A stretch of 64,000 bases of DNA from positions 442,400 to 506,399 of the forward strand of contig NZ_LMDK01000012.1 of NCBI RefSeq assembly GCF_001425055.1. Direction: 5' to 3'. Source of the stretch: Pelomonas sp. Root1237. Its GTDB lineage: Bacteria; Pseudomonadota; Gammaproteobacteria; Burkholderiales; Burkholderiaceae_C. The notes under the pieces are model-generated. The model made no database searches. It worked only from the letters and a program-made list of their open reading frames with translations, and had not been told where the DNA came from. This document shows, piece by piece, positions 47,111 through 64,000 of the stretch. The stretch's first letter is position 1. Each line of letters starts with the position of its first letter. The translations under genes were made by a program, and so were the position numbers.

Positions 47111-47977
47111 TCAGCGCCGCGACTTGCTGGCCAGCACCAGCGCAATGCCGCCGAGGATGGCCGCCGAGGCCAGCAGCAGGCGCGGGGTGACGGCCTCCGA
47201 CAGCAGCGCCACGCCGCCGAATGCGGCAATCAGCGGCACCGACAGCTGCACGGTCGCGGCCCGCAGCGCGGACAGCCCGCGCAGCGCGGCGTACCAGATG
47301 ACATAGCCGATGCCGGACGTGACGGCGCCCGAGGCGACGGCCAGGGCGATACCGGTGGTGCTGGCGCGCGCCTGGGCTGCGAACAGCAGGCTCACCAGCA
47401 GAGCGAGTGGCGTGGCGCGCAGGAAGTTGCCCGCTGTTGCCGCCAACGGGTCGCTCACGCCGCGGCCGCGCAGCGAGTACAGGCCCCAGGCCAGGCCCGC
47501 TGCCGCCATCATGGCCGCGCCGAGGACCGGTGGCGCCGCCACGCCGGGTGACACCAGATAGACCAGCCCCGCCACGGCCAGAGCGAGGCCGAACCAGGCC
47601 AGGGGCCGGAACCTCTCGCCCGAGCGCAGCCCGGCGCTGAACATCGTCACCTGGACCGCGCCGAACAGGATCAGGGCGCCCGTGCCCGCTGACAGGCTGA
47701 GGTAGGCGAAGGAGAAGAAGGCGACGTAGGCGAACAGCATGGCCGCGGCGAGCCAGTCGGAATGCGTGGCGGCGGCCTGGCCGGGCCTGAGCCGCACGAT
47801 GGCCGCGAGCGTGACCGCCCCGGCGGCCAGCCTGATGCTGCCGAAGCTGGCCGCATCGATGAGATCCTGCCGCAGGGCGAGCCGGCAAAGCAGCGAATTC
47901 GCCGCGAAGGCCAGCATCGCCGTCGTGGTCAGGGCCAAGGTCTTCAGCAGGGGCAGGCCGGCGCGCGACTCAGACAT
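47111..47977 (-). CDS. EamA/DMT-superfamily transporter
   Basis: A 288-residue protein with ten predicted helices forming two EamA repeats (about residues 10-145 and 150-285). Members export metabolites such as amino acids, but no specific substrate is evident. The start overlaps the DUF2182 stop by eight bases, and together with DUF1326 these three genes form one minus-strand operon. Confidence 0.88.
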   Translation of the reverse strand: MSESRAGLPLLKTLALTTTAMLAFAANSLLCRLALRQDLIDAASFGSIRLAAGAVTLAAIVRLRPGQAAATHSDWLAAAMLFAYVAFFSFAYLSLSAGTGALILFGAVQVTMFSAGLRSGERFRPLAWFGLALAVAGLVYLVSPGVAAPPVLGAAMMAAAGLAWGLYSLRGRGVSDPLAATAGNFLRATPLALLVSLLFAAQARASTTGIALAVASGAVTSGIGYVIWYAALRGLSALRAATVQLSVPLIAAFGGVALLSEAVTPRLLLASAAILGGIALVLASKSRR

Positions 47978-48929
47978 GGACCCCCACCAGGACCGCGGCC
48001 CAGCCCAGCAGCGCGACGCCCAGCGGCGTGCTCAGCCGGTGGCCCCAACGGACATTCTTCTCAACCGCCATGACCGCGGCCAGCAACAGCATCCAGCCGA
48101 GGCTGCCGGTGCCGAGCGCAAACATCAGCAGCATCAATGCCCAGCAGCAGCCGACACAGAACAGGCCGTGGTGGGCGCCCAGCATGAACGCGTGCCGCGC
48201 CTCGGCGTGGCCGCGCCAATGCTGCATGACGAAGCTCAAGGGGGTGCGGCACTTCTCCAGGCAGCGGTGCTTGAGGCTGCTGAACTGGAAGACCCCGGCC
48301 AAGGCGATGATGGCCGTGCCGATCAGCCAGCCATGCCAGGCCAGCAGGGGCACGCCGTTGACGAGCGCCAGCAGCCCCGCGTGCAGCACATGGGCCACGA
48401 GCCCGAAGCCGCCCCACACCGCCATATAGCCCAGGCCCAGCAGCAGGAGCAGCCGGCGGTGGTCCGCCCGCCGCGCCGTCAACCGGTCGAAGGCATTGAA
48501 CAGGGGCAGGGTGGTCGGCAGCATCATGGCCGTGGTCATCAGGATCCACGCGGCGCTGTAGAGCAGCGCGGGCACGATGACGTCGCCGCCGGGGATCGCC
48601 CGGCAGACGAAGGCGGCCGGGCCGGAGGCCGTCCAGTCGCCGTGTTCGAGGTAGCGCCCATAAGGGCTGCCCGCCCAGGCCCACAGCGCCAGCCAGGCGA
48701 GGCCGGCCAGCGCACTCAGCACGACGAGGAACACGCGGCGATGACGGGAATCGCCGGCTGGCGGATCCGCCGCTACGGCGCCGCCAGCGGCGCTCAATGG
48801 TGCACCCTTCGGCCTGCGGCCTTGCCTGGCCGACAGCGCGGCCAGGCGTTCGCCAGGCATGGGATGCCCACAGGGCATCCCATGTCCGGGCTCACGAGCT
48901 TGCTTGGGACGGCCCGGCGCGGCGCTCAT
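47970..48929 (-). CDS. DUF2182 integral membrane protein with repeat-encoded N-terminus
   Basis: A 319-residue protein whose residues about 65-319 match the DUF2182 (predicted metal-binding membrane protein) family. It has many helices, LPTTLPLFNAFDR near residue 140 and histidine/cysteine-rich GAHHGLFCVGCCW near 260. The first 60 or so residues are encoded by a cluster of inverted repeats and do not look like family sequence. The ATG overlaps the DUF1326 stop as ATGA, supporting this start. Confidence 0.8.
   Translation of the reverse strand: MSAAPGRPKQAREPGHGMPCGHPMPGERLAALSARQGRRPKGAPLSAAGGAVAADPPAGDSRHRRVFLVVLSALAGLAWLALWAWAGSPYGRYLEHGDWTASGPAAFVCRAIPGGDVIVPALLYSAAWILMTTAMMLPTTLPLFNAFDRLTARRADHRRLLLLLGLGYMAVWGGFGLVAHVLHAGLLALVNGVPLLAWHGWLIGTAIIALAGVFQFSSLKHRCLEKCRTPLSFVMQHWRGHAEARHAFMLGAHHGLFCVGCCWALMLLMFALGTGSLGWMLLLAAVMAVEKNVRWGHRLSTPLGVALLGWAAVLVGVHV
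48778..48884. repeat. Cluster of three inverted repeats at the DUF2182 gene 5' end
   Basis: Three perfect stems occur in a row: GCGCCGC-CA-GCGGCGC (48778-48793), GCCTGGCC-N8-GGCCAGGC (48824-48847), and a 12-base-arm stem CATGGGATGCCC-ACA then its complement (48858-48884). They resemble an extragenic palindromic element but lie inside the reading frame just after the start codon. They would form strong hairpins in the mRNA. Confidence 0.7.
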
Positions 48930-49528
48930 GCGTCGAAGACGAAGGTGCTCTGCAGCGCGTTGTGGTTCTTGAGATCGAGATCGATGCCCAGCGCCGGGTT
49001 CTTGGAGCGATAGGTAGGCGCCTTGCCGACGAACACCGGCGCACCCGGCACCGTCGAGAACACGGTGTCTGACAAGGTCGTCAGCCCACCCATCGCACCG
49101 CGATAGGGCTCGAGTTCGGCGTAGTAATTCGTGCCGATCTCGAGGATGCCCTTACCGTCTTCCACGGTGAACTTGATGGGGGCCCGCTCGACCGACACCA
49201 CCGTGCCAATGAGGGCAGCGAGATCGGCGACCGGCCCGCCGGCCTGGCCCGTGTAGACCTTGAGCAGGGCCGCCTCCTGCGCCGCCGAGGCCTTGTCGTC
49301 GACAAAGATTGCGGCGGTCCAGTTGCCTTTGAGGATGTTGCCGGGGACATGGGCCACGGCCGCGATGGTGTTGCCGCCGACGTCCACGCCGTCGATCACG
49401 CCCTTGTCGATGCGCCAGGCGACGATGGTGTCGCAGGTGCCGTTGTCTGGATCCTCGCCGATCCAGCAGGGACACAGCACGTTGCAGTTGCAAACCTCCA
49501 GCAGACGACCTTCCAAGTGATAGCCCAT
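48926..49528 (-). CDS. DUF1326 family protein
   Basis: A 200-residue protein starting MGYHLEGRLLEVCNCNVLCP with the cysteine cluster CNCNVLCPCW (residues 13-22) that defines DUF1326. The cluster looks suited to metal binding. The family is often found beside DUF2182 genes, as here. ATG at 49528 is preferred because it begins the conserved sequence. Function unknown. Confidence 0.85.
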   Translation of the reverse strand: MGYHLEGRLLEVCNCNVLCPCWIGEDPDNGTCDTIVAWRIDKGVIDGVDVGGNTIAAVAHVPGNILKGNWTAAIFVDDKASAAQEAALLKVYTGQAGGPVADLAALIGTVVSVERAPIKFTVEDGKGILEIGTNYYAELEPYRGAMGGLTTLSDTVFSTVPGAPVFVGKAPTYRSKNPALGIDLDLKNHNALQSTFVFDA

Positions 49529-49673
49529 ATGACTCTCCGTCAAAGCCAAACACAATGAACTTGTCGCCGTGGCTCGGCCGGCAAGGCAAAAATCATCCTA
49601 CGCCGCGGTGCCGGGTCGAGTCCAGGTTCGTTGAAGACGGCATCCTCAATCGATCACCCCTACTTCGTCGCAT

Positions 49674-51245
49674 CTACTCCGTCGCATCGGCATTCGCCGC
49701 CCGCAGCGGGTCCGACACCTCCAGCCAGTCGAGATCGTTCTCCAGCGTGTGGAAGGCGTCGTCGCCGATGTCGCCGGCGTCGCGCATGGCCAGCAGCACC
49801 TGCCGGGCCGCCTGCAGCGCGGCGCGGTAGCTGTTGTCGTACTCGGCACCGAATGAAGCGAATGGGCTGCCGCTTTCATGCAGCGGCCGGCCCAGGTGCA
49901 TCTTCAGGTTCTTGCGCACCAGGCTCACGGCGGGGGAGCCGTCTGCGGGAAGTTGCTCAAAGGCGGCCTCCAGCATGCGCTGGCGCGCGGCATGCTCTTC
50001 GTGCGCCACCGGGTCGCCGTCCTTCAGATTGAGCGCGCGCAGCAAAGGCTTCAGTGTCAGCCCCTGGATCAGCAGCGTGCCCAGCACCACGAGAAAGGCC
50101 GTCAGCACGATCAGGTTGCGGGCCGGAAAGCCTTCGGGCAGCGCCAGCGCCGCTGCCAGCGTGACGATGCCGCGCATGCCCGCCCAGGAGATCACCAGCC
50201 CGCTGCCCACGCTGGGCCTCAGCATGGGCCGCGGCGGATTGAAGCCGTGGCGGTGGTCACGCCAGCGGATCGCGGCGTTGAAGGACATGTGCCAGGCGAC
50301 GCGCACGACGATGACGGTAACCAGCACGGCGGCGGCCACCAGCAGGTATTGCGTTCGCGCCGACGGCTCCAGCGCCATCAGGATGGGGCGGATCTGCAAC
50401 CCGATGAAGATGAACGCAAAAATGTTCAGCGCGAACACCACCGTGGCCCAGACCGCGTTGGTGGGGATGCGAACACGGGCAGGGATGCGCGCCGGTGCCA
50501 TGCGCGCCAGCGTCATGGCGAAGCAGACCGTGGTCAGCACGCCCGACAGCCCGACATGCTCCGCCAACTGCCACACGCTGATGGTGCCAATGAACTGCAG
50601 GATGATGGCCGTGGGAATGTGCTGCACATGCTCGAACATGCGCTGCACCAGCCAGCCCAGCGCAGGCCCCGCGATCAGGCTGCCCAGCACGGCCAGCAGG
50701 AAGGTCGGCGCCACCGCCTGCACCGAGAAGCCGCCGGCCGCCACTGCACCGACGGCCAGGCGGTAGATCAGCAGGGCGCTGGCGTCGTTGAGCAGGCTCT
50801 CGCCTTCGAGGATGCCCAGGATGCGCTGCGGCGGGCGCAGCGGCCGCAGCACCGCAGTGGCCGCCACCGCATCGGGCGGCGCGACGATGGCGCCCAGCGC
50901 CACGGCCGCGGCCCATGGCAGGCCCGGCACGAGGGCGTGAGCCACCATGGCCACTGCGGCCGTCGTCAGGCCCACCGCGAAGATCACGAGGCTGACCAGA
51001 GGCGCCCAGTTGTCTCTGAGGTCCCGCAATGACGCGTCGTAACCAGCGTCAACGAGAACCGGCGCGACGAACAGGGCCAGCACCAGTTCGGGCGGCAGGC
51101 TGGGGCTGGGTGCACCCGGCACCAGGGCCAGCAGCGCGCCGCCAATGGCCAGGAACACCGGGTAGGGCGCGCCCGCACGCCGCGCGGCGGCAGCCAGTGC
51201 CACGGCGGCGATGAAGATGATCAGGATTTGTTCAAGTTCCTGCAC
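49674..51245 (-). CDS. Cation:proton antiporter (CPA family)
   Basis: A 523-residue protein with about 12 helices (residues 1-405) and a cytoplasmic tail of 115 residues. The ion-binding region includes GAIVAPPDAVAATAVL near residue 138 and GILEGESLLNDASALL. It exchanges sodium or potassium for protons. The C-terminal domain is typical of NhaP/CPA1-like bacterial members. It is transcribed alone; a 145-base gap separates its stop from the DUF1326 gene. Confidence 0.88.
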   Translation of the reverse strand: MQELEQILIIFIAAVALAAAARRAGAPYPVFLAIGGALLALVPGAPSPSLPPELVLALFVAPVLVDAGYDASLRDLRDNWAPLVSLVIFAVGLTTAAVAMVAHALVPGLPWAAAVALGAIVAPPDAVAATAVLRPLRPPQRILGILEGESLLNDASALLIYRLAVGAVAAGGFSVQAVAPTFLLAVLGSLIAGPALGWLVQRMFEHVQHIPTAIILQFIGTISVWQLAEHVGLSGVLTTVCFAMTLARMAPARIPARVRIPTNAVWATVVFALNIFAFIFIGLQIRPILMALEPSARTQYLLVAAAVLVTVIVVRVAWHMSFNAAIRWRDHRHGFNPPRPMLRPSVGSGLVISWAGMRGIVTLAAALALPEGFPARNLIVLTAFLVVLGTLLIQGLTLKPLLRALNLKDGDPVAHEEHAARQRMLEAAFEQLPADGSPAVSLVRKNLKMHLGRPLHESGSPFASFGAEYDNSYRAALQAARQVLLAMRDAGDIGDDAFHTLENDLDWLEVSDPLRAANADATE

Positions 51246-53377: not shown

Positions 53378-54334
53378 GTGGTCGTCAGCGATATTGACGT
53401 TCGGCTTCTCAGAGTATTTCGCGCTGTGGTTGAGGCCGGCGGGTTTGCGAACGCCCAGGCCATTCTCAACGTGGGCGCCTCAACGATCAGCGCGCAGATG
53501 TCGCAATTGGAGACACGGCTGTGCTACGTCGTGTGTCATCGCGGCCGCGGGGGATTCAAACTCACGGAGAAAGGCGAAGCCCTTTACCGTCTAGTTATCG
53601 AACTCTTCCAGTCGGTTCAAAGCTTTGAGATGCAAGCTAGCGAGCTTCGCGGCGGCATGAACGGACAACTGCGGATCGGCTTTATAGACAACATCATCTC
53701 GGACCCCGGATCACCGTTTAGGCCGGCTGTCGATCACTTCCGTAGACAGCCACGCAACCATGCAAGGCTCCTGTTCGAGGTGCTTTCGCCGCAAGAGCTC
53801 GAGCGCGGCTTGCAGGACCACCGCATCGACGTCGCCGTCGGAGTGTTCTACAGCCGGCTGCCGGGCTTGGCGTACGAGCCGTTGTATCTGCAGCGCGACG
53901 TGCTGGTCTGCCACCGCGACCACCACCTGGCACGCATCGAAGATCAGGCGGAGCTCGCCAACGCGATACCGTCTTGCCACAAGGTGCTGCGCTCGTTCTT
54001 AGGCACGAACGAGTTCCCTTACGCGAGCCCTGGCGGAGAGACGATGGTGTCGAGCTTCAGCCACATCGAGGCTGCGGCTCTGATGATCCTCACCGGCGGG
54101 TGCATCGGTTTTCTGCCATTGCACTACGTGAAGCCATGGATAGATTCCGGCGAGCTGGTGGTGCTTCTGGCGAACGAGCTGTATCGCGATACGCATTTCT
54201 CAATAGCAACGCGCGCTGACCAAGTCCGGCCACCACCGGCACTGCACACTTTCTTGAGCTGCCTGCGCGCCGCGAAGGTGCAGGATGTGGGCACCGCTGA
54301 GGTGCATCAGCCGTTCACTTCGATCGCTGCGTAA
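53378..54334 (+). CDS. LysR-family regulator of the DUF1989/ABC cluster
   Basis: A 318-residue LysR protein with an N-terminal winged helix (VRLLRVFRAVVEAGGFANAQ, then GASTISAQMSQLETRL) and an effector domain that begins QLRIGFIDNI near residue 98. The start is taken as GTG at 53378 because GGAG lies six bases upstream and the upstream in-frame region is not LysR-like. It lies 108 bases before the binding-protein gene in the same direction, suggesting control of the nitrogen-compound cluster downstream. Confidence 0.85.
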   Translation: MVVSDIDVRLLRVFRAVVEAGGFANAQAILNVGASTISAQMSQLETRLCYVVCHRGRGGFKLTEKGEALYRLVIELFQSVQSFEMQASELRGGMNGQLRIGFIDNIISDPGSPFRPAVDHFRRQPRNHARLLFEVLSPQELERGLQDHRIDVAVGVFYSRLPGLAYEPLYLQRDVLVCHRDHHLARIEDQAELANAIPSCHKVLRSFLGTNEFPYASPGGETMVSSFSHIEAAALMILTGGCIGFLPLHYVKPWIDSGELVVLLANELYRDTHFSIATRADQVRPPPALHTFLSCLRAAKVQDVGTAEVHQPFTSIAA

Positions 54335-54442
54335 GTTACTTCGATTCGCGACGATTTTCCCGAACCGAAGGCGTCCATAGAGTCCATTCCATGACGCGTC
54401 CCGAGCAATTCGCGAGGGGCGTCTGGCACAGAAGGACTCAAG
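54335..54442. promoter_or_regulatory. Leader region of the DUF1989/ABC operon
   Basis: The 108 bases before the binding-protein gene should carry the operon promoter and LysR sites. An imperfect hairpin with GACGC/GCGTC ends (54393-54423) sits 19 bases before the start codon, and an AAGGAC ribosome site precedes the ATG. I compared it by eye with guanidine riboswitch patterns and saw no match. Confidence 0.4.
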
Positions 54443-55432
54443 ATGAAGACGTACGTCGTCACGGTTTGCGCGGCTGCGCTTGCAATCTCAGGCGCCGCTA
54501 TGGCGGCCGACAAGCCCCTGACCAAAGTCAAGGCCGGCCACCTCGTCGCCATCGACTTGGCGCCACTGTTTGTCGCCAAGGAAAGCGGGTGTTTCGCACA
54601 GCAGGGACTTGATGTCGAGACTGTGTTCTTCGCCAACCCGGGCGACAACAATGCTGCGCTCGCGGGTGGCGCCATCGACTTCAGCACGAACCCCTTCACG
54701 CTGCCATTCTTCGCGGCCAACAGCGGCGTGCCAATTCGCGTCATCTCCGCCGCCGGTGGCTGGGGTGCGGTCGAGGTAGTGGCTCAAGGCAAGCTCGGCT
54801 TCAAAACCATCGATGACATCAAGGCGTACACGAAGTCGGGCAAGCCGAAGCTCAAGATCGCAACGCTCCAAGGAGACACCCTCGAGTTGATCCTCAAGCG
54901 TGATTTCGCACGCCTGTCGATTTCTGAGAAGGACGTCGAGCTGGTGTACTTCAACGACCTGATGGCGATGGTCGAGACCTTCCGAAGCGGCCAAGTCGAT
55001 CTCTTGAGTCACATCAAGCCCTACACAACCGACATGGTTGTGAGCAAGGGCGCGGTGGTGCTGACCTCGAACGCCAAGACGTACTCGACCACGACGCCGA
55101 ACTCGGTGGTCAGCGTCCTCGAGAAGACGCTCAAGGACCGGCCGCAGGTGGTTCAGGCCTATCTACAGGGCTTGATCTGTGGCGCGGCGACTATCAACAA
55201 GCAGCCCGAAAAGGCAGCTGACTACCTCGCCAAGGGCAACTACTACCGCGTAGATCCCAAGGTCCTGCTGCAAGCGCTGAAGACCGCGCCAGCGCCTGTG
55301 TCCTTCACTCCCGATGTCGCCGTGATCCAGAGCGTCGTCGACGAACTGACCAAGCTGGGCTACGTCAAGGGGACAACCAAAGCCGCAGACATCTTCCGCC
55401 TCGACACGATCAAGGCGCTTGAGAAGCAATGA
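54443..55432 (+). CDS. ABC transporter substrate-binding protein (urea carboxylase-operon type)
   Basis: A 329-residue periplasmic NMT1/THI5-like binding protein. The signal peptide MKTYVVTVCAAALAISGAAM ends with AMA around residue 21. The mature sequence KVKAGHLVAIDLAPLFVAKE suggests the nitrate/taurine/pyrimidine binding group and specifically the version found in urea (guanidine) carboxylase operons. It overlaps the first DUF1989 gene by four bases. Confidence 0.82.
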   Translation: MKTYVVTVCAAALAISGAAMAADKPLTKVKAGHLVAIDLAPLFVAKESGCFAQQGLDVETVFFANPGDNNAALAGGAIDFSTNPFTLPFFAANSGVPIRVISAAGGWGAVEVVAQGKLGFKTIDDIKAYTKSGKPKLKIATLQGDTLELILKRDFARLSISEKDVELVYFNDLMAMVETFRSGQVDLLSHIKPYTTDMVVSKGAVVLTSNAKTYSTTTPNSVVSVLEKTLKDRPQVVQAYLQGLICGAATINKQPEKAADYLAKGNYYRVDPKVLLQALKTAPAPVSFTPDVAVIQSVVDELTKLGYVKGTTKAADIFRLDTIKALEKQ

Positions 55433-56238
55433 GCGACGCTGATATGCCTACCGACGAAATCACAACGTTCGAGAGCTTGCCGCCGCTGGCGCGTGCCGCC
55501 GTACCAACGTACTCAACGACTTTCAAACCCGACCTGACTCTGTGGCGTGAACGCATGCCCGGCGGCATGCACTGGTCTGGCCTGCTGCGACGCGGCAACA
55601 GCCTTCGAATCACGACGCTCGCAGCAGGCGCCAACGTGTCCGCGCTCTTCTACAACTATGAAGACCGTGGTGAACGCTACAACATGCCCGACACGCTGAA
55701 GGAACAGAGCACGGCTTTCCTTCGCCAAGGCCTTGTCTGCTATTCAGACATGGGACGCGTGTTGTGCTCGCTCACCGAGTCGAACTGCGACTGGCACGAC
55801 ACCATCGGCGGGATGTCGGACGCTGCAGTAGTTGAGCAGCGCTACGGGACCAAGCGCTATCAGGAGCACCGCAATGCCATGCATCGCAACGCACGGGATG
55901 GCGTCCTGACGCAACTCGGCAAGTGGGGCATGGGCAAACGCGACGTCGTGCCCAACGTCAACTTCTTCAGCCGGGTCGTCGTGAACGACAACGGCGACAT
56001 GCGTTTTGTCGATGGGCATAGCGGCAAAGGCGACTTCGTCGACTTGCGCTTCGAGATGAACACCCTTGTCGTGCTGTCAACCTGCCAGCACCGCCTCGAT
56101 CTGAACCCTCGCTATGAACCAGCAGCGGTTGAGATGGTGTGCTGGCGTTCAGGCACTGCTGGCAGGGACGACCCATGCCGACTGTCGATGCCCGAGAACG
56201 GGCGCGGGTTCATCAATACCGAACGCTATTACCTCTGA
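55429..56238 (+). CDS. DUF1989 protein 1 (urea carboxylase-associated / carboxyguanidine deiminase-like)
   Basis: A 269-residue DUF1989 protein of the larger 'urea carboxylase-associated' type. Related pairs (CgdA/CgdB) have been reported to form a metal-dependent carboxyguanidine deiminase that produces allophanate. It carries [13 protein letters not shown] near residue 118, the candidate metal region, and [14 protein letters not shown] near 170. It is joined to the binding-protein gene by ATGA and lies 14 bases before protein 2. Guanidine chemistry is an inference, since no carboxylase is encoded nearby. Confidence 0.82.
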
Positions 56239-56252
56239 ACGGGCCGACCATC

Positions 56253-56927
56253 ATGAACGCACAGATCGTTACGAGCGACCTTGACCCGGCCGACGCCATC
56301 TTTGATTTTGAGCATCCTCCCGGCACGCCCTGGACTCACGAAATCAAGAGGGGCCAGTTCTTCCGCATCGTCGACCTTGAAGGCAATCAGGCCGTCGACA
56401 CGCTCTTCTACAACGCCCGCGATATCCAGGAGCGCTACAGCTTGCTCCACACCATGCTGGCACAGGAGAACCTCTACCTGGGCGTGGGTACGAAGATCAT
56501 GTCCAGCGAGGGTCGGCCCATGTTGACCATCGTGGCCGACACCTGCGGCCGCCATGACACCGTCGGCGGCGGGGCCTGCTCCTCCGAGAGCAACACGATC
56601 CGCTACTCGCTTGAGAAGCGCTTCATGCACAGCTGCCGCGACAACTTCATGCTCGCCATTGCCGACCACCCGTCCGGGCTGACGAAGCGCGACATCGTCT
56701 CCAACATCAACTTCTTCATGAACGTCCCGATGACCCCGGCGGGACGGCTTACCTATGAGGATGGAATATCCGGGCCGGGCAAGTACATCGAGCTTCGCGC
56801 GGAGATGGACATCCTGGTCCTGATCTCAAACTGCCCTCAGTTGAACAATCCGGCGAACGGCTACAACCCCACGCCCGTTCGCTACCTCGTTTGGGATGCC
56901 ACCGCAAATACTGTGGGTGCCGCATGA
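56253..56927 (+). CDS. DUF1989 protein 2 (urea carboxylase-associated / carboxyguanidine deiminase-like)
   Basis: A 224-residue DUF1989 protein of the smaller type with [18 protein letters not shown] near residue 95, keeping cysteines that protein 1 lacks, and [15 protein letters not shown] near 148. It probably pairs with protein 1 as a heteromeric hydrolase or deiminase. ATG at 56253 begins the family sequence, while the longer frame upstream overlaps the previous gene. It overlaps the permease gene by four bases. Confidence 0.82.
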
Positions 56928-57715
56928 TGGCGAGCAAGTCGTTGCGGGCTGCCGCACCTGCCGTCGTCGGTCTCGCGTCAGTCGCTGCGGTGCTAGGCGC
57001 ATGGGAAGCCGCTGGCGCAGGTGGCGGCGCACTGGCCAGCGTCTTGCCGCCGCCTTCCCAGTTCCTGCGCAGCATCGCCGAGAGCAACTTCCGCATCGGG
57101 CTGGGGTCGCAGGCGGCGACGGTCACGCAGTCGCTGATGGCGACGTTCTTGCGAGTCTTCGTCGGCATGGGGATCGCCTTTGCTGCCGCCATCCTGACCG
57201 GAGCCTTGTTGAGCCTGTCCCGAGTGGCAACTTGGAGCCTGTCCCCGATCTTGCAGTTGCTCGCACCTATCGCGCCCATCGCGTGGATTCCAACGGCCAT
57301 CGTGGTCTTCGGCATCGGGGACATCACGGCCATCTTCATCGTCTTCATGGGCGTCTACTTCATCTTGACCCTGGCGACGCTGGCAGAGATTCGGCGCATA
57401 CCTCCCGAGTTCCAGACGGTTGCAGGCAACCTCGGCGCGACGCCGCTTCAATGCTGGCTCTGGGTGACGCTCCCGGCCATCCTTCCCGGGGTCTTCATGC
57501 TGCTGCGTACCAACTTCATCGCCGCATGGATGGCGGTTCTGGTTGCGGAGATGGTCGGCCTTCGAGACGGCCTGGGCGCCATCATCATGATGGGACGCAA
57601 CCTCTTCAACAACGAGCTGGTGATGTTCGGAATGGTCGTGATCGGCCTCACCGGCTTCATCGTCGACAGACTGCTGCAGTTCATCGGCCAGCGGGTGCTG
57701 TGGTGGAGGGTATGA
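56924..57715 (+). CDS. ABC transporter permease (nitrate/taurine type)
   Basis: A 263-residue inner-membrane permease with about six helices and the EAA-type loop [20 protein letters not shown] near residue 178. It forms the channel for the binding protein encoded two genes upstream. ATGA overlaps on both sides show tight coupling within the operon. Substrate is likely a small nitrogen compound such as guanidine or urea derivatives, by context. Confidence 0.87.
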
Positions 57716-58473
57716 GCGTGCTCAAGAGAACCGAACCTGCCGTCGCTTTCCAAGTCGAGCGATTGACAGTTGACTTTGGCACGGACAAGACCGGTCCCCT
57801 GCAAGACTTCTCACTGAACATCCGCCAGGGAGAGATTACGTGCCTGCTCGGTCCATCGGGCTGCGGCAAGACGACGCTGCTGAAGTCGTTGGGTGGCTTC
57901 GTCGTCGGGCGAGACAGCGGTGGCGTGCTGTTTGAGTCGAGGTATCTCAACGGCCCTACGCCCGAAATCGTGATGATCTTCCAGGAGAACAACCTGTTCC
58001 CATGGCTGTCCGCGCGCGGGAATGTTGAGTTCGGCCTGAAGTTCAAGGCAGCCAAACGTGACGGCAAGCAGGTGGTGGACGAGATGCTCCGCATCGTCGG
58101 TCTCACCGAGGCTGCCGACCGGTTTCCGAATCAGCTCTCAGGCGGTATGCGGCAGCGCACCGCCATCGCTCGGGCCCTCGTTTCAGATCCGCATGTGCTC
58201 CTGCTCGATGAGCCCTTCAGCGCACTGGACATCAGTCTTCGCCGACGGATGCACACCCTGATGCTCGATCTGTGGAGCAAGACGGGCAAGACGATGGTGA
58301 TGGTCACCCACAGCATCGAAGAAGCGCTTCAAGTTGGCCACCGGGTCATCGTTCTTGGCGACCGCCCAGCACGAGTCTTGATCGACGCCGACACCAGTGC
58401 CGACGCAATGAAGGACCGCTACTCGCCGGAGTTCCTGGAAATGCAGCGGCGGATCGAGGCCGTCATCTACTGA
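57712..58473 (+). CDS. ABC transporter ATP-binding protein (nitrate/taurine type)
   Basis: A 253-residue ATPase with Walker A GPSGCGKTT near residue 47, Q-loop FQENNLFPW, signature LSGGMRQR, Walker B VLLLDEP and H-switch VTHSIEEA. It energises the importer formed with the preceding permease and binding protein. The start overlaps the permease stop as ATGA. The short C-terminal tail has no regulatory domain. Confidence 0.9.
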   Translation: MSVLKRTEPAVAFQVERLTVDFGTDKTGPLQDFSLNIRQGEITCLLGPSGCGKTTLLKSLGGFVVGRDSGGVLFESRYLNGPTPEIVMIFQENNLFPWLSARGNVEFGLKFKAAKRDGKQVVDEMLRIVGLTEAADRFPNQLSGGMRQRTAIARALVSDPHVLLLDEPFSALDISLRRRMHTLMLDLWSKTGKTMVMVTHSIEEALQVGHRVIVLGDRPARVLIDADTSADAMKDRYSPEFLEMQRRIEAVIY

Positions 58474-58514
58474 GCCCGACGCCAACAAACAACTTCTGCA
58501 GCATCAAGCCAACC

Positions 58515-59864
58515 ATGCACCAATCTCTTGAGCCAAGCATCCGTTCTCTCGTCCAGAAGGCCGTCACGGGGGATCTTCATCCGCTGACCATCGTCGACGA
58601 AGTCCTGCATCGCCTCAACATTCATCGGGACAACCCGATCTTCATCTCAACGACGCCAGCAGATGCGCTCCGTCAACGGGCGGCCGAACTGGCAGAGCTG
58701 CCCGCCGCGACCCGATCTGCACTGCCTTTGTACGGCGTACCTTTTGCCGTGAAGGACAACATCGACGTCGCCGGCACGCCGACGACGGCCGGCTGCCCCG
58801 AGTTCGCATACGTTCCTGCCAAGAACGCATTCCTCGTCGACCGGTTGCTTGCTGCAGGCGCCATGCTGATCGGCAAGTGCAATCTGGACCAGTTCGCGAC
58901 CGGGTTGACTGGCATGCGCTCTGTCTACGGCAGTCCCATCAATCCGTACAGCCCGGACCACGTCACCGGTGGCTCCAGCTCTGGATCGGCAGTCGCCGTC
59001 TCCTCCGGGATCGTGCAGTTCTCCCTGGGAACGGACACGGCCGGCTCTGGGCGCATCCCTGCCGGCTTCAACAACATCGTGGGCTACCGCCCCTCTAGCG
59101 GCCTGCTCAGCGCCTCCGGTGTCGTGCCGTGCGCGCGCTCACTCGACACGGTGTCCGTGTTCGGCAACTGTGCAGATGACGTTCGGCGCGTCTTGACTGT
59201 CGCCGCGGCGTTCGATCCAGCCGACCCCTACTCGGTCGACCTCGCACCGCGAGCTCTCCCCCTCGCGGCGCCGGTCTTCGGAATTCTGGACTCGCAAGAC
59301 GACTTTTTCCTCGGTGACCAACAGGCCCGGGCGGCATACGAGCAAGGCATTGCAAAGCTCCAATCTCTCGGTTCCGCCACAGTCGTCATCGACTACGCGC
59401 CGTTCAAGGAAATTTCAGACATGACCTACTTCGGTCCATCAATGGCGGAACGCACTGCGGTCCTTGGCGACTTCATCTCGAGCCATCCGGACGCGTCTTA
59501 CACGCCGGTCGTTCGCGACGCTCTGGTCAAAGCAGCCTCGTTTACCGCCGTGGATGCCTTCAAGATGCTTCATCGACTCAAAGCGCTAGAGCGCCAGATC
59601 GAGCTCCAGACTTGGTCCCAGGTAGACATGCTCTGCATCCCAACAGCACCGACCATTCACACTCGCGCCGACGTTGAACGCGACCCGGCCTACGGGTCAA
59701 CAAGCCTTGGTGCGTATACCAACTTCGCGCCTTTCTTGGGTTTGCCTGCAGTGTCCGTGCAAAACGGCTTCCGACCAGACGGGTTGCCTAGCGGGATCAT
59801 GTTCGTCGGCCAGCGGGCTGATGACATGAGACTGCTTCAGGTTGCAGAGGTGTTTGCAACCTGA
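58515..59864 (+). CDS. Amidase-signature hydrolase, allophanate hydrolase-like without C-terminal domain
   Basis: A 449-residue amidase signature enzyme with the triad Lys80 (AVKDNID), Ser154 (GGSSSGS) and nucleophile Ser178 (GTDTAGSGR). It resembles the N-terminal domain of allophanate hydrolase AtzF, but full-length AtzF has a further domain of roughly 130-150 residues that is absent. Downstream bases contain no remnant of it that I can see. It starts 41 bases after the ATPase gene without a clear ribosome site. It could hydrolyse allophanate or a related carbamoyl compound, or be a trimmed gene. Confidence 0.8.
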   Translation: MHQSLEPSIRSLVQKAVTGDLHPLTIVDEVLHRLNIHRDNPIFISTTPADALRQRAAELAELPAATRSALPLYGVPFAVKDNIDVAGTPTTAGCPEFAYVPAKNAFLVDRLLAAGAMLIGKCNLDQFATGLTGMRSVYGSPINPYSPDHVTGGSSSGSAVAVSSGIVQFSLGTDTAGSGRIPAGFNNIVGYRPSSGLLSASGVVPCARSLDTVSVFGNCADDVRRVLTVAAAFDPADPYSVDLAPRALPLAAPVFGILDSQDDFFLGDQQARAAYEQGIAKLQSLGSATVVIDYAPFKEISDMTYFGPSMAERTAVLGDFISSHPDASYTPVVRDALVKAASFTAVDAFKMLHRLKALERQIELQTWSQVDMLCIPTAPTIHTRADVERDPAYGSTSLGAYTNFAPFLGLPAVSVQNGFRPDGLPSGIMFVGQRADDMRLLQVAEVFAT

Positions 59865-60130: not shown

Positions 60131-62776
60131 TCAGTAGTCGATCCCCACCCGAATCCCGTAGGTCCGCGGGTCGTTCCAGTAGGCGCGCACGAAGCCGCCG
60201 CCGTCCTGCACCGCGTTCTTCGTCATCTTGTTGGTCGCGTTCAGCACATAGAGCTCGGCGCGCCAGTACTTGGGCGCCTGCAGCTTGAGGCTGGCGTCGA
60301 TCTTGGTGAAGGCCTTCTGGCCGTCGGAGATGTGCGGGTTGTCCAGGTTGAGCAGGGTGAAGTACATCTTGTCCTGCCACTTCAGGTTGACCCAGGGCGT
60401 CAGCTCCCAGCCCTTGCCGAACATGAAGCTCTGTGAGAAGTTGATGCCGAAGCTGTACTTGGGCGACAGGGGCAGGTGGTTGCCGGTGATGTCCAGGATC
60501 TGGCGGCCGGCGAACTCGCGGACGGGGCCGCTGTAGGGCTCGGGGCAGTGCGGTGCGCCCATCTCCTCGCGCACACCGCAGTTCCAGGTGTCGCTGTAGG
60601 ACGGGTAGTCCTTCATCTTGCTGTTGATGTAGCTGAAGAAGGCCCCCAGGCGGGCGCCGGGCCAGGGCTTGTAGTCGACCTCCAGCTCGATGCCCGGGAT
60701 GCTGACGACGCCGACGTTGACGGTTTGCCACTTGGTGACGATGTCGCAGGTCGGGTTGTCTTCGGGGCAGGGCTCGGTGCGCTTGATGCGCGAGGCGAAG
60801 TTGTCGCCCGTGACCTGCATGTCCTTGTAGCGGCTGAAGAAGAGGGTGGCCGACAGGCTCAGGCGCTTGTTCAGCAGCAGGCCCTTGTAGCCGATCTCGA
60901 AGTTGGTGACGGTCTCGGGCTTGTAGGGGAAGAAGGTGTATTGCGGGCCGGCGGGGCCGTCCACGCAGTCGTGGCCGCCGCAGCGGTCGTCCTTGTCGCC
61001 GAAGCCGCCGGCCTTGTAGCCGGTGGACAGCGACGTGTAGACCATGTCCAGCGGCGTGAGCTGCTTCTGCAGGCCCAGGCGGTAGGTGACCTTCTTCCAG
61101 CTCTGGGCGTTGTCGTTGCCGGCCGGTGGGCCCCATTCGGCATAGGCGCCGGTGCCGGCGAAGGGCCCCATCTTCTCGGTCAGGTCACGGCCGTTGTGGG
61201 CGCGAAAGCCCGGCTCGCCGGGCGTGCCGGGATGGAACAAGCCGTTGTAGTAGGCCGGCGTGGAGCCGTCCCAGCCACCGAAGACCTGGCCGTTCTTGTC
61301 GGTCTTCTTGTCATGGCTGTAGCGGGCGCCGAGGGTGGCGGTCCAGGTCGGCGTGAACTTCCAGTCGGCCTGGGCGAAGACGGCCTTGGCGTCGATCTGG
61401 CGGTCGGGCTGGTGATAGAACTGACTGGTCGGAAAGCCATAGGGGGCTGTGACGAGCTGCTCCTGCGCATAGTCGATGGCGTTCTTCTCGTGCATCCAGA
61501 ACAGGCCGGTGACGAGCTGCAGCGTGTCGGTGTGGTGCTTGAACTGCAGTTCGTGCACGCTGGACTTGTAGGTCGAGCCGAGCGTGAACGAGGTCATGTC
61601 GCTGACGGGCCAGGTGCCCCAGTCGCCGTCGGGGCCGACGGGCAGGCTGGCCGTCACCTGGCTGGCGATGGGGTGGTAGCCGCCGTCATCGTCGGACTGC
61701 TGCGTGCGCTTCTGGTTGGCGAAGGCAAAGCCGTATTCGATGCTGCTGCTGGGGCTGAGGTTCCACACCAGGTTGGAGCGCAGCGTGTCGATGGACATGT
61801 CGGTCTTGCCCGGCACGTTGATCTTGACGTCCCATTTGCCGCCGGTGCAGGCGAAGGCGGTGCTGGCTGCCATGTCGCAGTCCTTCATCGCGACGTCGCC
61901 GGCGCCATTGTTCTGGAACTTCTCGTAGGCCACCAACCACTCGATGTTGTCGGTCAGCTTGAGCCGGCCGGCGATGCGGGCCGCCCATTCGTCGCGGTTG
62001 TAGTAGTACTTGCTTTTGGAGACCAGGGTGTTGCGGCGCTGGTCCACGTCAGGGATGCCATCGGCGACGAAGCCATGCGCCGGCAGGTTGACGTCGTAGA
62101 AGTCCTGCTGCTGGTTGATCCAGCCGTCGCGCGTGACCTTGCTGACGGTGGCGCGCAGCGCGAACTTGTCGTTGACGGCGATGTTCTGGATCAGGTTGAC
62201 CTGGCGCTTGCGGTAGTTGCCGAAGTCCGCTTCGACATTGCCGTAGGTGGAGCCGAACTCGGGCTTGGCCGGGATGATGTTGACGCTGCCGCCGGTGGAG
62301 TTGCGGCCGAACAGCGTGCCCTGCGGGCCGCGCAGCACTTCCACCTGCTCCAGGTCGAACATCAGCGCGAGCGCCCCTTGCGGCCGCGGCGAGTACAGGC
62401 CGCCGACATGCAGGCCGACCGCGGGGTCACCGATCTCGGTGAAGTTGGTGGAGCCCACGCCGCGGATGTTGATCTGGATGCCGGAGTCGGCGCCCGAGGA
62501 GATCTGCAGATTGGGCACGGTGCCGGACAGTCCGCGCACGTCGTGGATGCCTTCGCGGCTCAGCGCCTCCTGGGTGATGGCGGTGACGGCGACCGGCGTC
62601 TTCAGCAGGTTGGAGTTGACGCGCGTCGCGCTGACGGTGACGGTGGGCAGCTCGTTCCTGGCGTTGCCCTTGTCCGTCGTGGCGGTCGTCGTCTCTTGGG
62701 CAAAGGCCGCGCCGGCCAGCAGGCTCACGGCGGCTGCGGTGACGGTCTTGGCGTATCCAGCTCGGTTCGTTCTCAT
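60131..62776 (-). CDS. TonB-dependent outer-membrane receptor
   Basis: An 881-residue outer-membrane receptor. It has a signal peptide (TAAAVSLLAGAAFAQ, cleavage near residue 27), then a plug domain with LPTVTVSATRVNSN as the TonB-box-like region and LRGPQGTLFGRNSTGGSVNI. The long beta-barrel ends in the aromatic-terminal strand YGIRVGIDY. ATG at 62776 is preceded by AAGGAG. It probably imports a saccharide or related ligand, judging from the sugar symporter gene next to it, but specificity is not readable. Confidence 0.9.
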   Translation of the reverse strand: MRTNRAGYAKTVTAAAVSLLAGAAFAQETTTATTDKGNARNELPTVTVSATRVNSNLLKTPVAVTAITQEALSREGIHDVRGLSGTVPNLQISSGADSGIQINIRGVGSTNFTEIGDPAVGLHVGGLYSPRPQGALALMFDLEQVEVLRGPQGTLFGRNSTGGSVNIIPAKPEFGSTYGNVEADFGNYRKRQVNLIQNIAVNDKFALRATVSKVTRDGWINQQQDFYDVNLPAHGFVADGIPDVDQRRNTLVSKSKYYYNRDEWAARIAGRLKLTDNIEWLVAYEKFQNNGAGDVAMKDCDMAASTAFACTGGKWDVKINVPGKTDMSIDTLRSNLVWNLSPSSSIEYGFAFANQKRTQQSDDDGGYHPIASQVTASLPVGPDGDWGTWPVSDMTSFTLGSTYKSSVHELQFKHHTDTLQLVTGLFWMHEKNAIDYAQEQLVTAPYGFPTSQFYHQPDRQIDAKAVFAQADWKFTPTWTATLGARYSHDKKTDKNGQVFGGWDGSTPAYYNGLFHPGTPGEPGFRAHNGRDLTEKMGPFAGTGAYAEWGPPAGNDNAQSWKKVTYRLGLQKQLTPLDMVYTSLSTGYKAGGFGDKDDRCGGHDCVDGPAGPQYTFFPYKPETVTNFEIGYKGLLLNKRLSLSATLFFSRYKDMQVTGDNFASRIKRTEPCPEDNPTCDIVTKWQTVNVGVVSIPGIELEVDYKPWPGARLGAFFSYINSKMKDYPSYSDTWNCGVREEMGAPHCPEPYSGPVREFAGRQILDITGNHLPLSPKYSFGINFSQSFMFGKGWELTPWVNLKWQDKMYFTLLNLDNPHISDGQKAFTKIDASLKLQAPKYWRAELYVLNATNKMTKNAVQDGGGFVRAYWNDPRTYGIRVGIDY

Positions 62777-62853
62777 CGCTCTCGGCTCCTTGTGTCTGTG
62801 TATGGGCGGCCGCCGTCCTGGCCCGAAAGCCACGGCGTGTTTGAGTCGGGAAG

Positions 62854-64000
62854 TCAGGCCCCGGGTCTGGGCTTTGGTTTAGTGCCGGACAACAACTGCG
62901 CCAGCGAGATGGTCTCGTTGCGCACGAGTGGCCTCGCCCAGGCGCTGACGCTCAGGATGTAGGCCAGGGTCAGGAAGACGGTGGTCATGGCGGCGCGCAG
63001 GCCGATGGCGTCGCCGAGCACGCCCACCAGCAGCGGCACGACGGCGCCGCCGAGGATGCCGGTGCACAGCACGCCCGAGAAGGCGCCGTGGTGGCGGGGT
63101 ACGGAGTTCAGGCCCAGCGAGAAGACGATGGAGAACATCACCGACAGGCAAAAGCCCGAGGCCGGGAAGGCCCACAGCGAGGCGGCCGCCGGGCCGAACA
63201 GCGCGATGCCGACGCAGCCCATGGCCAGCACGGTGAAGCCGGCCAGCACGACGCGTGAGTCCAGCAGCTTGAGCAGCACCAGGCCGAGCAGGCAGCCGAC
63301 GGACATCAGGCCCCAGAAGCGGGCGACGGCGTCCGCCCCCTCGGCCGCGGCCGAGAAGCCGTGATAGGTGGCCAGGAACTGCGACATCCAGTTGGCCAGC
63401 ACCTGCTCGGTGCCGACATAGGCCAGGATGCCCAGGAAGAAGAGGCGCACATCACGCCGCGCCAGCAGCTCCTTGTAGGCCGCCCAGCCGCCGGCGCGCT
63501 CGTCGTCCTTGAGCTCGACCCGGGGCAGGGGCAGGGTCTGATTGGCGAGGATGAGGGCGACGAAGCCGGCCGTGAAGATCCAGTAGAAGGCGACCCACAC
63601 CAGGGAACTGCCGGCCGCGCCGGGCCTCTCCATCAGCAGCTGGAAGGCCCAGGGGCTCAGGAAGGACGCCAGCCCGAAGACGAGTTGCCCCATCACCGAG
63701 AAGAAGGCGAAATGGGCCTCACCGCCGGCCGTGCGCAGCAGCGGATTGATGACGACCTGCAGCAGGGCCATGCCCAGGCCGATGACGAAGAGACCGGCGA
63801 TGGCCGTGCCGTAGCTGGGCCACATCGCGATGGCCAGCGACCCGGCGAGGTTGAGCAGGAAGGCGATCAGGATGGTGAAGCGCGGTCCGCGCGCCTCGAC
63901 CAGCATGCCGCCGGGCACCGAGACCAGGCCGTAGGCGAGGAAGAAGGAGAAGGGCAGGAAACCCGCGAGCGCCAGGCTGAGCTTGAAGTCCTGGATGATG
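62854..64000 (-). CDS. FucP-like MFS sugar symporter (5' end outside the window)
   Basis: The last 382 residues of a major facilitator protein of the fucose/glucose-galactose (FHS/FucP) kind. It begins at the window edge with QDFKLSLALAGFLPFSFFLA, and VSVPGGMLVEARGP, the family loop with GGM, follows. About ten helices are visible. It may be a sugar:proton symporter. It lies 77 bases upstream of the receptor gene in the same direction, so the two are probably one uptake operon. Confidence 0.82.
   Translation of the reverse strand, partial: IIQDFKLSLALAGFLPFSFFLAYGLVSVPGGMLVEARGPRFTILIAFLLNLAGSLAIAMWPSYGTAIAGLFVIGLGMALLQVVINPLLRTAGGEAHFAFFSVMGQLVFGLASFLSPWAFQLLMERPGAAGSSLVWVAFYWIFTAGFVALILANQTLPLPRVELKDDERAGGWAAYKELLARRDVRLFFLGILAYVGTEQVLANWMSQFLATYHGFSAAAEGADAVARFWGLMSVGCLLGLVLLKLLDSRVVLAGFTVLAMGCVGIALFGPAAASLWAFPASGFCLSVMFSIVFSLGLNSVPRHHGAFSGVLCTGILGGAVVPLLVGVLGDAIGLRAAMTTVFLTLAYILSVSAWARPLVRNETISLAQLLSGTKPKPRPGA

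What the first reader, a model, noticed from the sequence alone, without database searches (positions are those of the whole stretch)
53378..59864. Guanidine/urea-type operon without its carboxylase
Seen: LysR, an NMT1-type binding protein, two DUF1989 proteins, permease, ATPase and an amidase in one tight cluster. Known: in characterised loci such DUF1989 pairs (CgdAB) work after a biotin-dependent guanidine (formerly urea) carboxylase and before allophanate hydrolase. Here no biotin carboxylase is encoded and the amidase is only the AtzF-like N-terminal domain. The cluster may therefore act on a pre-formed carboxylated or carbamoylated compound taken up by its own importer, a pathway not described to my knowledge.
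Basis: partly seen in the sequence, partly recalled or inferred. Interest (0 to 1): 0.75.

Follow-up and report, generated by a model that had tools for sequence, protein, structure and literature searches.

The report
Carboxylase-free guanidine operon, two enzymes lost
The gene cluster looks like a shortened copy of an operon, apparently undescribed, that could break down the fertiliser additive cyanoguanidine without the usual ATP-driven carboxylase; this copy seems to have lost the two enzymes that would start the pathway.

Summary
Seven intact, tightly packed genes (53378-59864) encode LysR, a binding protein, CgdA- and CgdB-type DUF1989 proteins, permease, ATPase and an amidase that is only the N-terminal domain of allophanate hydrolase. 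No urea/guanidine carboxylase reaches the model cut-off in the genome.

Relatives explain it. Carboxylase-free CgdA/CgdB form one clade (window, G695, Aquabacterium parvum with an identical MAG; 100/100). Outside the window each carries a cobalt-type nitrile hydratase and an isochorismatase-like hydrolase between ATPase and amidase. That hydrolase has Glu215 and no Lys145, like an assayed guanylurea hydrolase and unlike biuret/triuret hydrolases. The window's LysR is nearest those of guanylurea-hydrolase and nitrile-hydratase plasmid cassettes.

Inferred pathway: cyanoguanidine -> guanylurea -> carboxyguanidine -> allophanate -> NH3 + CO2. The carboxyl comes from the nitrile, so no carboxylase is needed. 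The window copy seems to have lost the first two enzymes, with no replacement found; its present function is uncertain.

Nothing was assayed, and this clade's CgdAB differs from standard CgdAB beside the conserved WHD/RHD motif.

The parts
53378..54334 (+). LysR-type regulator
   Evidence: PF00126/PF03466; 56% identical to the LysR beside the hydrolase of plasmid pMET-2; the best six of 513 matching plasmid records carry a P0008-like hydrolase, three with and three without nitrile hydratase
54443..55432 (+). NMT1/SsuA-type binding protein of an ABC importer; substrate probably cyanoguanidine or guanylurea (inferred)
   Evidence: PF13379/PF09084; homologues 58-86% identical lie beside nitrile hydratase genes in G695, G710, Klebsiella, Stutzerimonas and Gloeocapsopsis
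55429..56238 (+). CgdA-type DUF1989 protein (UAAP1)
   Evidence: TIGR03425 over cut-off; in the carboxylase-free clade, 100/100
56253..56927 (+). CgdB-type DUF1989 protein (UAAP2)
   Evidence: TIGR03424 over cut-off; in the carboxylase-free clade, 100/100
56924..57715 (+). ABC permease
   Evidence: PF00528
57712..58473 (+). ABC ATPase
   Evidence: PF00005
58474..58514 (.). 41-bp gap where relatives carry nitrile hydratase beta, alpha, accessory protein and isochorismatase-like hydrolase: inferred deletion site
   Evidence: L134:12635-15009 and L062:13054-15439 hold the block; best tblastn match of its proteins in the window has E 0.04
58515..59864 (+). Amidase, allophanate-hydrolase (AtzF) N-terminal domain only
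   Evidence: PRK08186 over cut-off, TIGR02713 under it; best PDB match is the allophanate hydrolase chain 4cp8, 487 aa

Best explanation
The cluster is a shortened member of a small, apparently undescribed class of operon that breaks down cyanoguanidine (dicyandiamide) without a carboxylase. In full-length relatives: an ABC importer takes up cyanoguanidine; cobalt nitrile hydratase hydrates its nitrile to guanylurea; an isochorismatase-like hydrolase removes the terminal amide nitrogen, giving carboxyguanidine; CgdAB deiminates this to allophanate before it decarboxylates; and the short AtzF-type amidase hydrolyses allophanate, its product falling apart to NH3 and CO2. The carboxyl that guanidine carboxylase normally installs with ATP and biotin here derives from the nitrile carbon. 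The window copy has lost the nitrile hydratase-hydrolase block between ATPase and amidase, so as it stands it probably cannot start on cyanoguanidine. Shown: gene content, clade, synteny, residue signatures, no match to a full carboxylase or to nitrile hydratase in the genome. Inferred: every substrate and reaction, and the deletion.
For: Carboxylase-free CgdA/CgdB form one clade (100/100 in both trees; 4 of 45 rows, two of them identical), while 39 of the 45 rows have a carboxylase-size ORF next to CgdB. The three non-window rows carry NHase beta/alpha/accessory + hydrolase between ATPase and amidase; the subunits of L062 pass TIGR01323, TIGR03888 and TIGR03889; motif CTLCSC in 6 of 6 cassettes checked. 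ATPase followed directly by NHase is shared by G695, L061/L062, G710, Klebsiella and Stutzerimonas, the last three without CgdAB in the stretch seen; only the window lacks it. Hydrolase: catalytic D/K/C kept; Glu215 with Thr145 in 5 of 5 proteobacterial NHase-linked rows, Glu215/Tyr145 in the pMET-2 guanylurea hydrolase, Gln215/Lys145 in 13 of 13 biuret/triuret-type rows; Gln215 contacts the distal amide of biuret and Gln215Glu raises KM more than 25-fold (PMC5806882, passages). LysR nearest to guanylurea-hydrolase and NHase cassettes. NHases, mostly cobalt-containing, hydrate the cyanamide-type cyano group of sulfoxaflor (PMC13243292, passages). The allophanate hydrolase product decomposes unaided (PMC5806882, PMC6219798, passages).
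Against: No activity was measured. At columns invariant in 38 carboxylase-linked rows, all four clade rows differ in CgdA at 4 of 39 (D118S, G121D, E162Q, P222R), and the clade's CgdB at 4-7 of 80, with C202A in all four and an extra residue next to RHD: its substrate may not be carboxyguanidine. Glu215 rows are not one clade; the pMET-2 hydrolase does not group with the NHase-linked ones. The Gloeocapsopsis hydrolase is divergent (His215). Only three independent CgdAB-containing loci are known here, the window included. Aquabacterium and the MAG also keep a standard guanidine locus. dN/dS of window genes against relatives is about 0.055-0.10 and relaxation is not clear, so the shortened operon may still work on something. 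In the CgdA tree the window branches first in the clade, in the CgdB tree it pairs with G695.
Confidence: 0.62

Rival explanations
1. Reversed order and live shortened operon: the altered CgdAB deiminates guanylurea directly to biuret, and in the window strain biuret is finished by the biuret-hydrolase/allophanate-hydrolase operon on contig C22. The window would then be a working guanylurea importer and deiminase.
For: Clade-specific changes beside the conserved WHD/RHD motif in CgdA and CgdB; genes under purifying selection although the NHase block is gone; the genome encodes a hydrolase that passes the BiuH model (412.6 bits, cut-off 370) and is 72% identical to R. leguminosarum BiuH, in one operon with full AtzF; LysR kin to guanylurea-hydrolase cassettes.
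Against: NHase-linked hydrolases carry the guanylurea-type, not biuret-type, residues and occur with the same importer where CgdAB is absent. CgdAB activity on guanylurea is not known to me; I made no separate search for it.
Confidence: 0.13
2. Dead remnant: after the block deletion the remaining genes do nothing useful, too recently for decay to show.
For: No match to nitrile hydratase and no Glu215 hydrolase among the two close matches in the genome (two weak partial matches were not examined); a Gly-to-Cys change in the regulator's helix-turn-helix region against both relatives; six of seven genes have more window-specific than G695-specific residues, 139 to 105 over all seven, binomial p = 0.034.
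Against: All seven frames intact; dN/dS about 0.055-0.10; the amino-acid imbalance does not differ from that at four-fold sites (139:105 versus 156:136, Fisher p = 0.43).
Confidence: 0.2
3. One reading: the cluster imports and degrades a pre-formed carboxylated or carbamoylated compound.
For: Window gene content taken alone.
Against: In the relatives NHase and hydrolase stand in the operon; carboxyguanidine is unstable (recalled).
Confidence: 0.05

Closest known systems
Guanidine carboxylase pathway (guanidine carboxylase, CgdAB, allophanate hydrolase), reviewed in PMC12186494 (passages)
   Same: CgdA/CgdB pair, ABC importer, allophanate-hydrolase-type amidase
   Different: No carboxylase, no guanidine riboswitch, short amidase, a different importer (permease 23-28% and ATPase 35-42% identical to those beside CgdAB in the standard loci), CgdAB in its own clade
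Guanylurea hydrolases of Pseudomonas mendocina GU and MET (PMC9800807, passages)
   Same: Relatives' hydrolase (L062, L134) is 53-55% identical to the pMET-2 enzyme with the same Glu215; related LysR (56%). That L133:5998-6633 is the assayed BB_00025 is inferred from its neighbour, an annotated nucleoside deaminase
   Different: The published route goes through free guanidine and guanidine carboxylase; here CgdAB and amidase are in one operon with NHase and no carboxylase
Triuret/biuret pathway TrtA-BiuH-AtzF (PMC7948467, passages)
   Same: Isochorismatase-like hydrolase feeding allophanate hydrolase; such an operon lies on contig C22 of this genome
   Different: Residues 145 and 215 differ; no CgdAB or NHase in that pathway
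Nitrile hydratases that degrade sulfoxaflor and related insecticides (PMC13243292, passages)
   Same: Relatives' NHase has alpha, beta and accessory genes and the CTLCSC motif; cobalt-type transporter genes follow in L061/L062 (CbtB, CbtA) and a HupE/UreJ gene in Stutzerimonas
   Different: Here embedded with guanidine-type catabolic genes and a dedicated importer

Membership tests
Guanidine carboxylase pathway | Biotin-dependent urea/guanidine carboxylase (TIGR02712 over cut-off) | tested here: not met
   Best 555.8 of 1303.85 bits in own genome; G695 also lacks it, but is 88% complete
Guanidine carboxylase pathway | CgdA and CgdB (TIGR03425, TIGR03424 over cut-off) | tested here: met
   317.2 and 320.2 bits
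Guanidine carboxylase pathway | CgdA/CgdB residues invariant in carboxylase-linked pairs | tested here: inconclusive
   35 of 39 (CgdA) and 73 of 80 (CgdB) kept in the window
Guanidine carboxylase pathway | Guanidine riboswitch control | tested here: not met
   No Rfam match at gathering score in the window
Allophanate hydrolase (AtzF) | Amidase-signature domain with allophanate-hydrolase subfamily score | tested here: met
   PRK08186 502.1 of 487 bits; the Lys/Ser/Ser and Tyr...Arg stretches align with 4cp8 (the role of these residues is recalled)
Allophanate hydrolase (AtzF) | Full two-domain length (TIGR02713 over cut-off) | tested here: not met
   474.7 of 511.05 bits, no C-terminal domain; same length in 4 of 4 clade rows
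Carboxylase-free NHase-hydrolase-CgdAB operon (class proposed here) | Same LysR, importer, CgdAB clade and short amidase in the same order | tested here: met
   (LysR of L061 lies beyond its contig end)
Carboxylase-free NHase-hydrolase-CgdAB operon (class proposed here) | Nitrile hydratase present | tested here: not met
   PF02979 without match in own genome; the same search finds it in 3 of 3 relatives
Carboxylase-free NHase-hydrolase-CgdAB operon (class proposed here) | Guanylurea-type hydrolase (Glu215) present | tested here: not met
   Own genome's two close hydrolases are Gln215/Lys145; two weak partial matches (36% and 33%) not examined
Guanylurea hydrolase (relatives' hydrolase) | Activity on guanylurea | not testable with these tools
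   Only residue signature and identity; below the BiuH model cut-off (267.3 of 370)

The most novel reading that the evidence does not exclude
The clade's CgdAB has changed specificity and deiminates guanylurea directly to biuret; the window operon, having shed nitrile hydratase and hydrolase, is a live guanylurea-assimilation module that hands biuret to the chromosome's biuret/triuret operon. Either way, the clade would be a first gene set for mineralising cyanoguanidine without an ATP-dependent carboxylase.
Probability: 0.13. Interest if true: 0.8.

Novelty: new variant of a known kind. Interest (0 to 1): 0.62.

Why it matters
Cyanoguanidine (dicyandiamide) is a fertiliser additive, and guanylurea is a common contaminant formed from it and from metformin (PMC11410670, passage). 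Five library searches listed no paper that I could recognise as giving genes for its breakdown or linking it to nitrile hydratase (of the listed papers I opened passages of seven; the one paper holding both 'cyanoguanidine' and 'nitrile hydratase' mentions them apart). Older physiological papers appear only as references. The relatives give a complete, testable gene set, and the window gives what looks like a natural deletion of its first two steps. It also shows that a CgdAB pair is not by itself evidence of guanidine use through the carboxylase.

Tried and rejected
Guanidine riboswitch in the window: none at gathering score. Split or distant carboxylase in the genome: only partial matches, by size and position biotin-carboxylase subunits of other enzymes and a 319-aa frame over positions 445-779. 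Frameshifted C-terminal amidase domain downstream: the TIGR02713 match ends a few residues past the stop at 59862-59864, and the relatives' amidases are equally short. More copies of the importer (E <= 1e-30): 1 of 369 genomes in the class (own only), 3 of 399 in the family (own, G695, G710), none in viral contigs. CgdA across the order: 65 of 399 genomes with a match, own included, none nearer than 64% besides the window; across the family 56 of 399, own included, only G695 near (81%), the next 63%. Relaxed selection on the window branch: amino-acid imbalance p = 0.034 alone, but no difference from four-fold sites. Own biuret/triuret hydrolases as stand-ins for guanylurea hydrolase: their residues and the BiuH model score of one argue against it. 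Binding-protein and ATPase trees to order the events: weak, and G710 fell with L062. I did not run structure prediction. Query caveats: P0001 lacks its first three residues, P0004 and P0007 carry one extra leading residue; the first PF02979 search had no ringing control, repaired. In the IHL alignment L061 was dropped as identical to L062; in the invariant-column count the partial rows L067, L070 and L094 were dropped.
Full report
WHAT IS THERE. The window carries seven + strand genes in 6.5 kb: LysR (53378-54334), an NMT1/SsuA-type binding protein (54443-55432), two DUF1989 proteins (55429-56238, 56253-56927), ABC permease (56924-57715), ABC ATPase (57712-58473) and an amidase (58515-59864). 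Four of the six gene junctions overlap or lie within 15 bp; the LysR-binding protein gap is 108 bp and the ATPase-amidase gap 41 bp. The DUF1989 proteins score as UAAP1 (CgdA) and UAAP2 (CgdB), each over its cut-off; the amidase passes the allophanate hydrolase subfamily model PRK08186 but falls short of the two-domain model TIGR02713. The operon's G+C is 0.608 against 0.672 for the window and 0.69 for 20 kb upstream, and CgdB (P0004) finds no match in any of the 19 congeners searched. Both fit horizontal acquisition; the empty site was not examined.

NO CARBOXYLASE, BUT A SECOND ALLOPHANATE HYDROLASE. In the whole genome (6.43 Mb, 22 contigs, completeness 100) the best urea-carboxylase match is 555.8 bits against a cut-off of 1303.85, over positions 1-441 in a 723-aa frame. 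The same search rings over cut-off in G530, G799 and G800. A full allophanate hydrolase (720.9 bits, cut-off 511.05) lies on C22 in an operon with a PF02608 (Bmp) binding protein, ORFs that look like two permeases and an ATPase (from, not scanned), and two isochorismatase-like hydrolases, of which the first passes the BiuH model (412.6 bits, cut-off 370) and the second does not (257.7). This resembles published biuret/triuret operons (PMC7948467 and PMC12625717, passages) and annotated plasmid operons of Pseudomonas, Ideonella and Enterobacter.

RELATIVES SUPPLY THE MISSING STEP. A scan of genome contigs with CgdA gave 36 loci. The two closest, Aquabacterium parvum (L061) and a Burkholderiales MAG (L062), are identical over 9264 bp, so they count once. 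They have the window's order LysR-SBP-CgdA-CgdB-permease-ATPase-amidase (LysR seen in L062 only; L061 begins inside the SBP) at 76-88% identity, with six genes between ATPase and amidase: nitrile hydratase beta, alpha and accessory protein, an isochorismatase-like hydrolase, and CbtB- and CbtA-like transporter subunits. CbtA and CbtB pass the Pfam but not the NCBIfam cut-offs. A third locus, G695 (same family, other genus), has the same operon without CbtA. G710 has LysR-SBP-permease-ATPase-NHase-hydrolase without CgdAB or amidase in 20 kb, its permease appearing split between two frames; it has a standard-looking guanidine locus elsewhere. Plasmids of Klebsiella pneumoniae and Stutzerimonas stutzeri carry the same importer-NHase-hydrolase cassette without CgdAB in the stretches seen; Gloeocapsopsis dulcis has a related one in another order with a divergent hydrolase. 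ATPase directly followed by NHase is thus shared by G695, L061/L062, G710 and both of these proteobacterial plasmid cassettes, and its absence from the window is most simply a deletion. The best match to the block's proteins in the window has E 0.04, and the genome gives no match to nitrile hydratase alpha chain, while the same search finds it in 3 of 3 relatives.

TREES. In 45-row trees of CgdA and CgdB the window, G695, L061 and L062 form one side of a branch with 100/100 support; the drawing root is the midpoint, and there the clade lies inside the carboxylase-linked rows. Of the other 41 rows, 39 have a carboxylase-size ORF (1200 aa or more, stop to stop, not tested by model) next to CgdB; the remaining two, L067 and L070, are cut by contig ends. 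Amidase length from hit start is 449-450 aa in 4 of 4 clade rows and 519-618 in the 29 other rows with a matching amidase; one row had only a weak match (34%) and 11 had none in the stretch. G799 and G800 also keep a separate standard locus with its own CgdA (44-45%), CgdB (62-63%), carboxylase and longer amidase (564-594 aa). Within the clade the two trees disagree on the window's place. The binding-protein tree joins G710 with L062 (97/97), so when CgdAB and the NHase cassette came together is not settled.

THE HYDROLASE LOOKS LIKE A GUANYLUREA HYDROLASE. In BiuH, Gln215 binds the distal amide of biuret and Lys145 also contacts biuret; Gln215Glu raises KM more than 25-fold (PMC5806882, passages). 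In a 22-row alignment, Lys145/Gln215 occur in 13 of 13 biuret/triuret-type rows, including both C22 enzymes of this genome and two crystallised biuret hydrolases. Thr145/Glu215 occur in 5 of 5 proteobacterial NHase-linked rows. The hydrolase of Pseudomonas mendocina plasmid pMET-2 (L133), which I take to be the guanylurea hydrolase BB_00025 assayed in PMC9800807 (passages) from its deaminase neighbour, has Tyr145/Glu215, as does a hydrolase beside a standard guanidine locus in G413; a second Klebsiella hydrolase has Asn145/Glu215; Gloeocapsopsis has Tyr145/His215. Losing a lysine and gaining a glutamate suits a cationic guanidino substrate (inference). Against this, Glu215 rows are not one clade on the tree, so the residue may have arisen more than once. 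The L062 hydrolase scores 267.3 bits with the BiuH model, below its cut-off of 370. Independently, the window's LysR has as its six best plasmid records, of 513, three Pseudomonas plasmids that each carry a hydrolase matching P0008 at 55.3% and the three NHase-cassette plasmids (46-56% identity), then drops to about 38%.

PATHWAY (INFERRED). Cyanoguanidine + H2O -> guanylurea (nitrile hydratase); guanylurea -> carboxyguanidine + NH3 (hydrolase); carboxyguanidine -> allophanate + NH3 (CgdAB); allophanate -> dicarboxyammonia + NH3 (amidase), which decomposes unaided (PMC5806882 legend, PMC6219798 passage). So the missing amidase C-terminal domain need not matter. The guanylurea paper describes guanidine as the product, feeding guanidine carboxylase (PMC9800807); direct capture of carboxyguanidine by co-encoded CgdAB is my inference. 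Cyanoguanidine is the nitrile whose hydration gives guanylurea (chemistry, not a call). NHases, mostly cobalt-containing, hydrate the cyanamide-type cyano group of sulfoxaflor (PMC13243292, passages). The NHase alpha motif is VCTLCSCYPW in 6 of 6 cassettes checked (its cobalt meaning is recalled).

RESULTS AGAINST A SIMPLE READING. The clade's CgdA departs from 4 of 39 columns invariant in 38 carboxylase-linked rows and its CgdB from 4-7 of 80, including C202A in all four rows; CgdB also has an inserted residue beside RHD in the three clade rows aligned. Some of these changes sit beside the family's conserved WHD/RHD motif, so the substrate could be guanylurea itself, giving biuret. The window strain does have a BiuH-type hydrolase and AtzF to finish biuret. 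Window genes have dN/dS of about 0.055-0.10 against the relatives (several synonymous distances are high or saturated). Window-specific residues exceed G695-specific ones (139:105, p = 0.034), but not more than at four-fold sites (156:136, Fisher p = 0.43). This leaves open that the shortened operon still works, or that the deletion is recent. Misassembly cannot be excluded without reads.

NOVELTY. Searches for dicyandiamide or cyanoguanidine with nitrile hydratase, guanylurea or degradation listed no paper recognisable as giving this pathway or its genes. The library holds only open-licence PMC papers, not all listed papers were opened, and the papers on CgdAB (PMC8184117) and on guanylurea metabolism (PMC8208167) were not held. 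Older work on bacterial dicyandiamide degradation was seen only as references.

Noticed in passing
G000:C22:188223-196546 (L058:2223-10546): The same genome carries what looks like a complete biuret/triuret operon: Bmp-family binding protein, permease- and ATPase-like ORFs, a hydrolase passing the BiuH model, a second hydrolase (both Lys145/Gln215) and full-length allophanate hydrolase.
   Followed up: yes
L157:8836-9534 (K. pneumoniae plasmid NZ_CP056226.1): A second isochorismatase-like hydrolase with Glu215/Asn145 beside a LysR and a 'putative urea' binding protein on the same wastewater plasmid as the nitrile hydratase cassette; possibly another guanylurea-type enzyme.
   Followed up: partly
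L139:16927-17565: Hydrolase with the Glu215/Tyr145 signature of the pMET-2 guanylurea hydrolase next to a standard CgdAB-carboxylase locus in genome G413.
   Followed up: partly
L156:11038-11813: Permease of the G710 nitrile hydratase cassette appears split between two frames; sequencing error or a real break. Left as it is.
   Followed up: no
window 53378-54334: LysR has Cys where both close relatives have Gly in the helix-turn-helix region (ETRLCYVV versus ETRLGYVV).
   Followed up: no
window 47970-51245: PpoB2-type (PF09948, copper chaperone) and DUF1326 proteins side by side, then a Na/H exchanger, upstream of the cluster; not examined further.
   Followed up: no
window 60131-63918: TonB-dependent receptor on the opposite strand just downstream of the cluster, with an MFS transporter beside it.
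   Followed up: no
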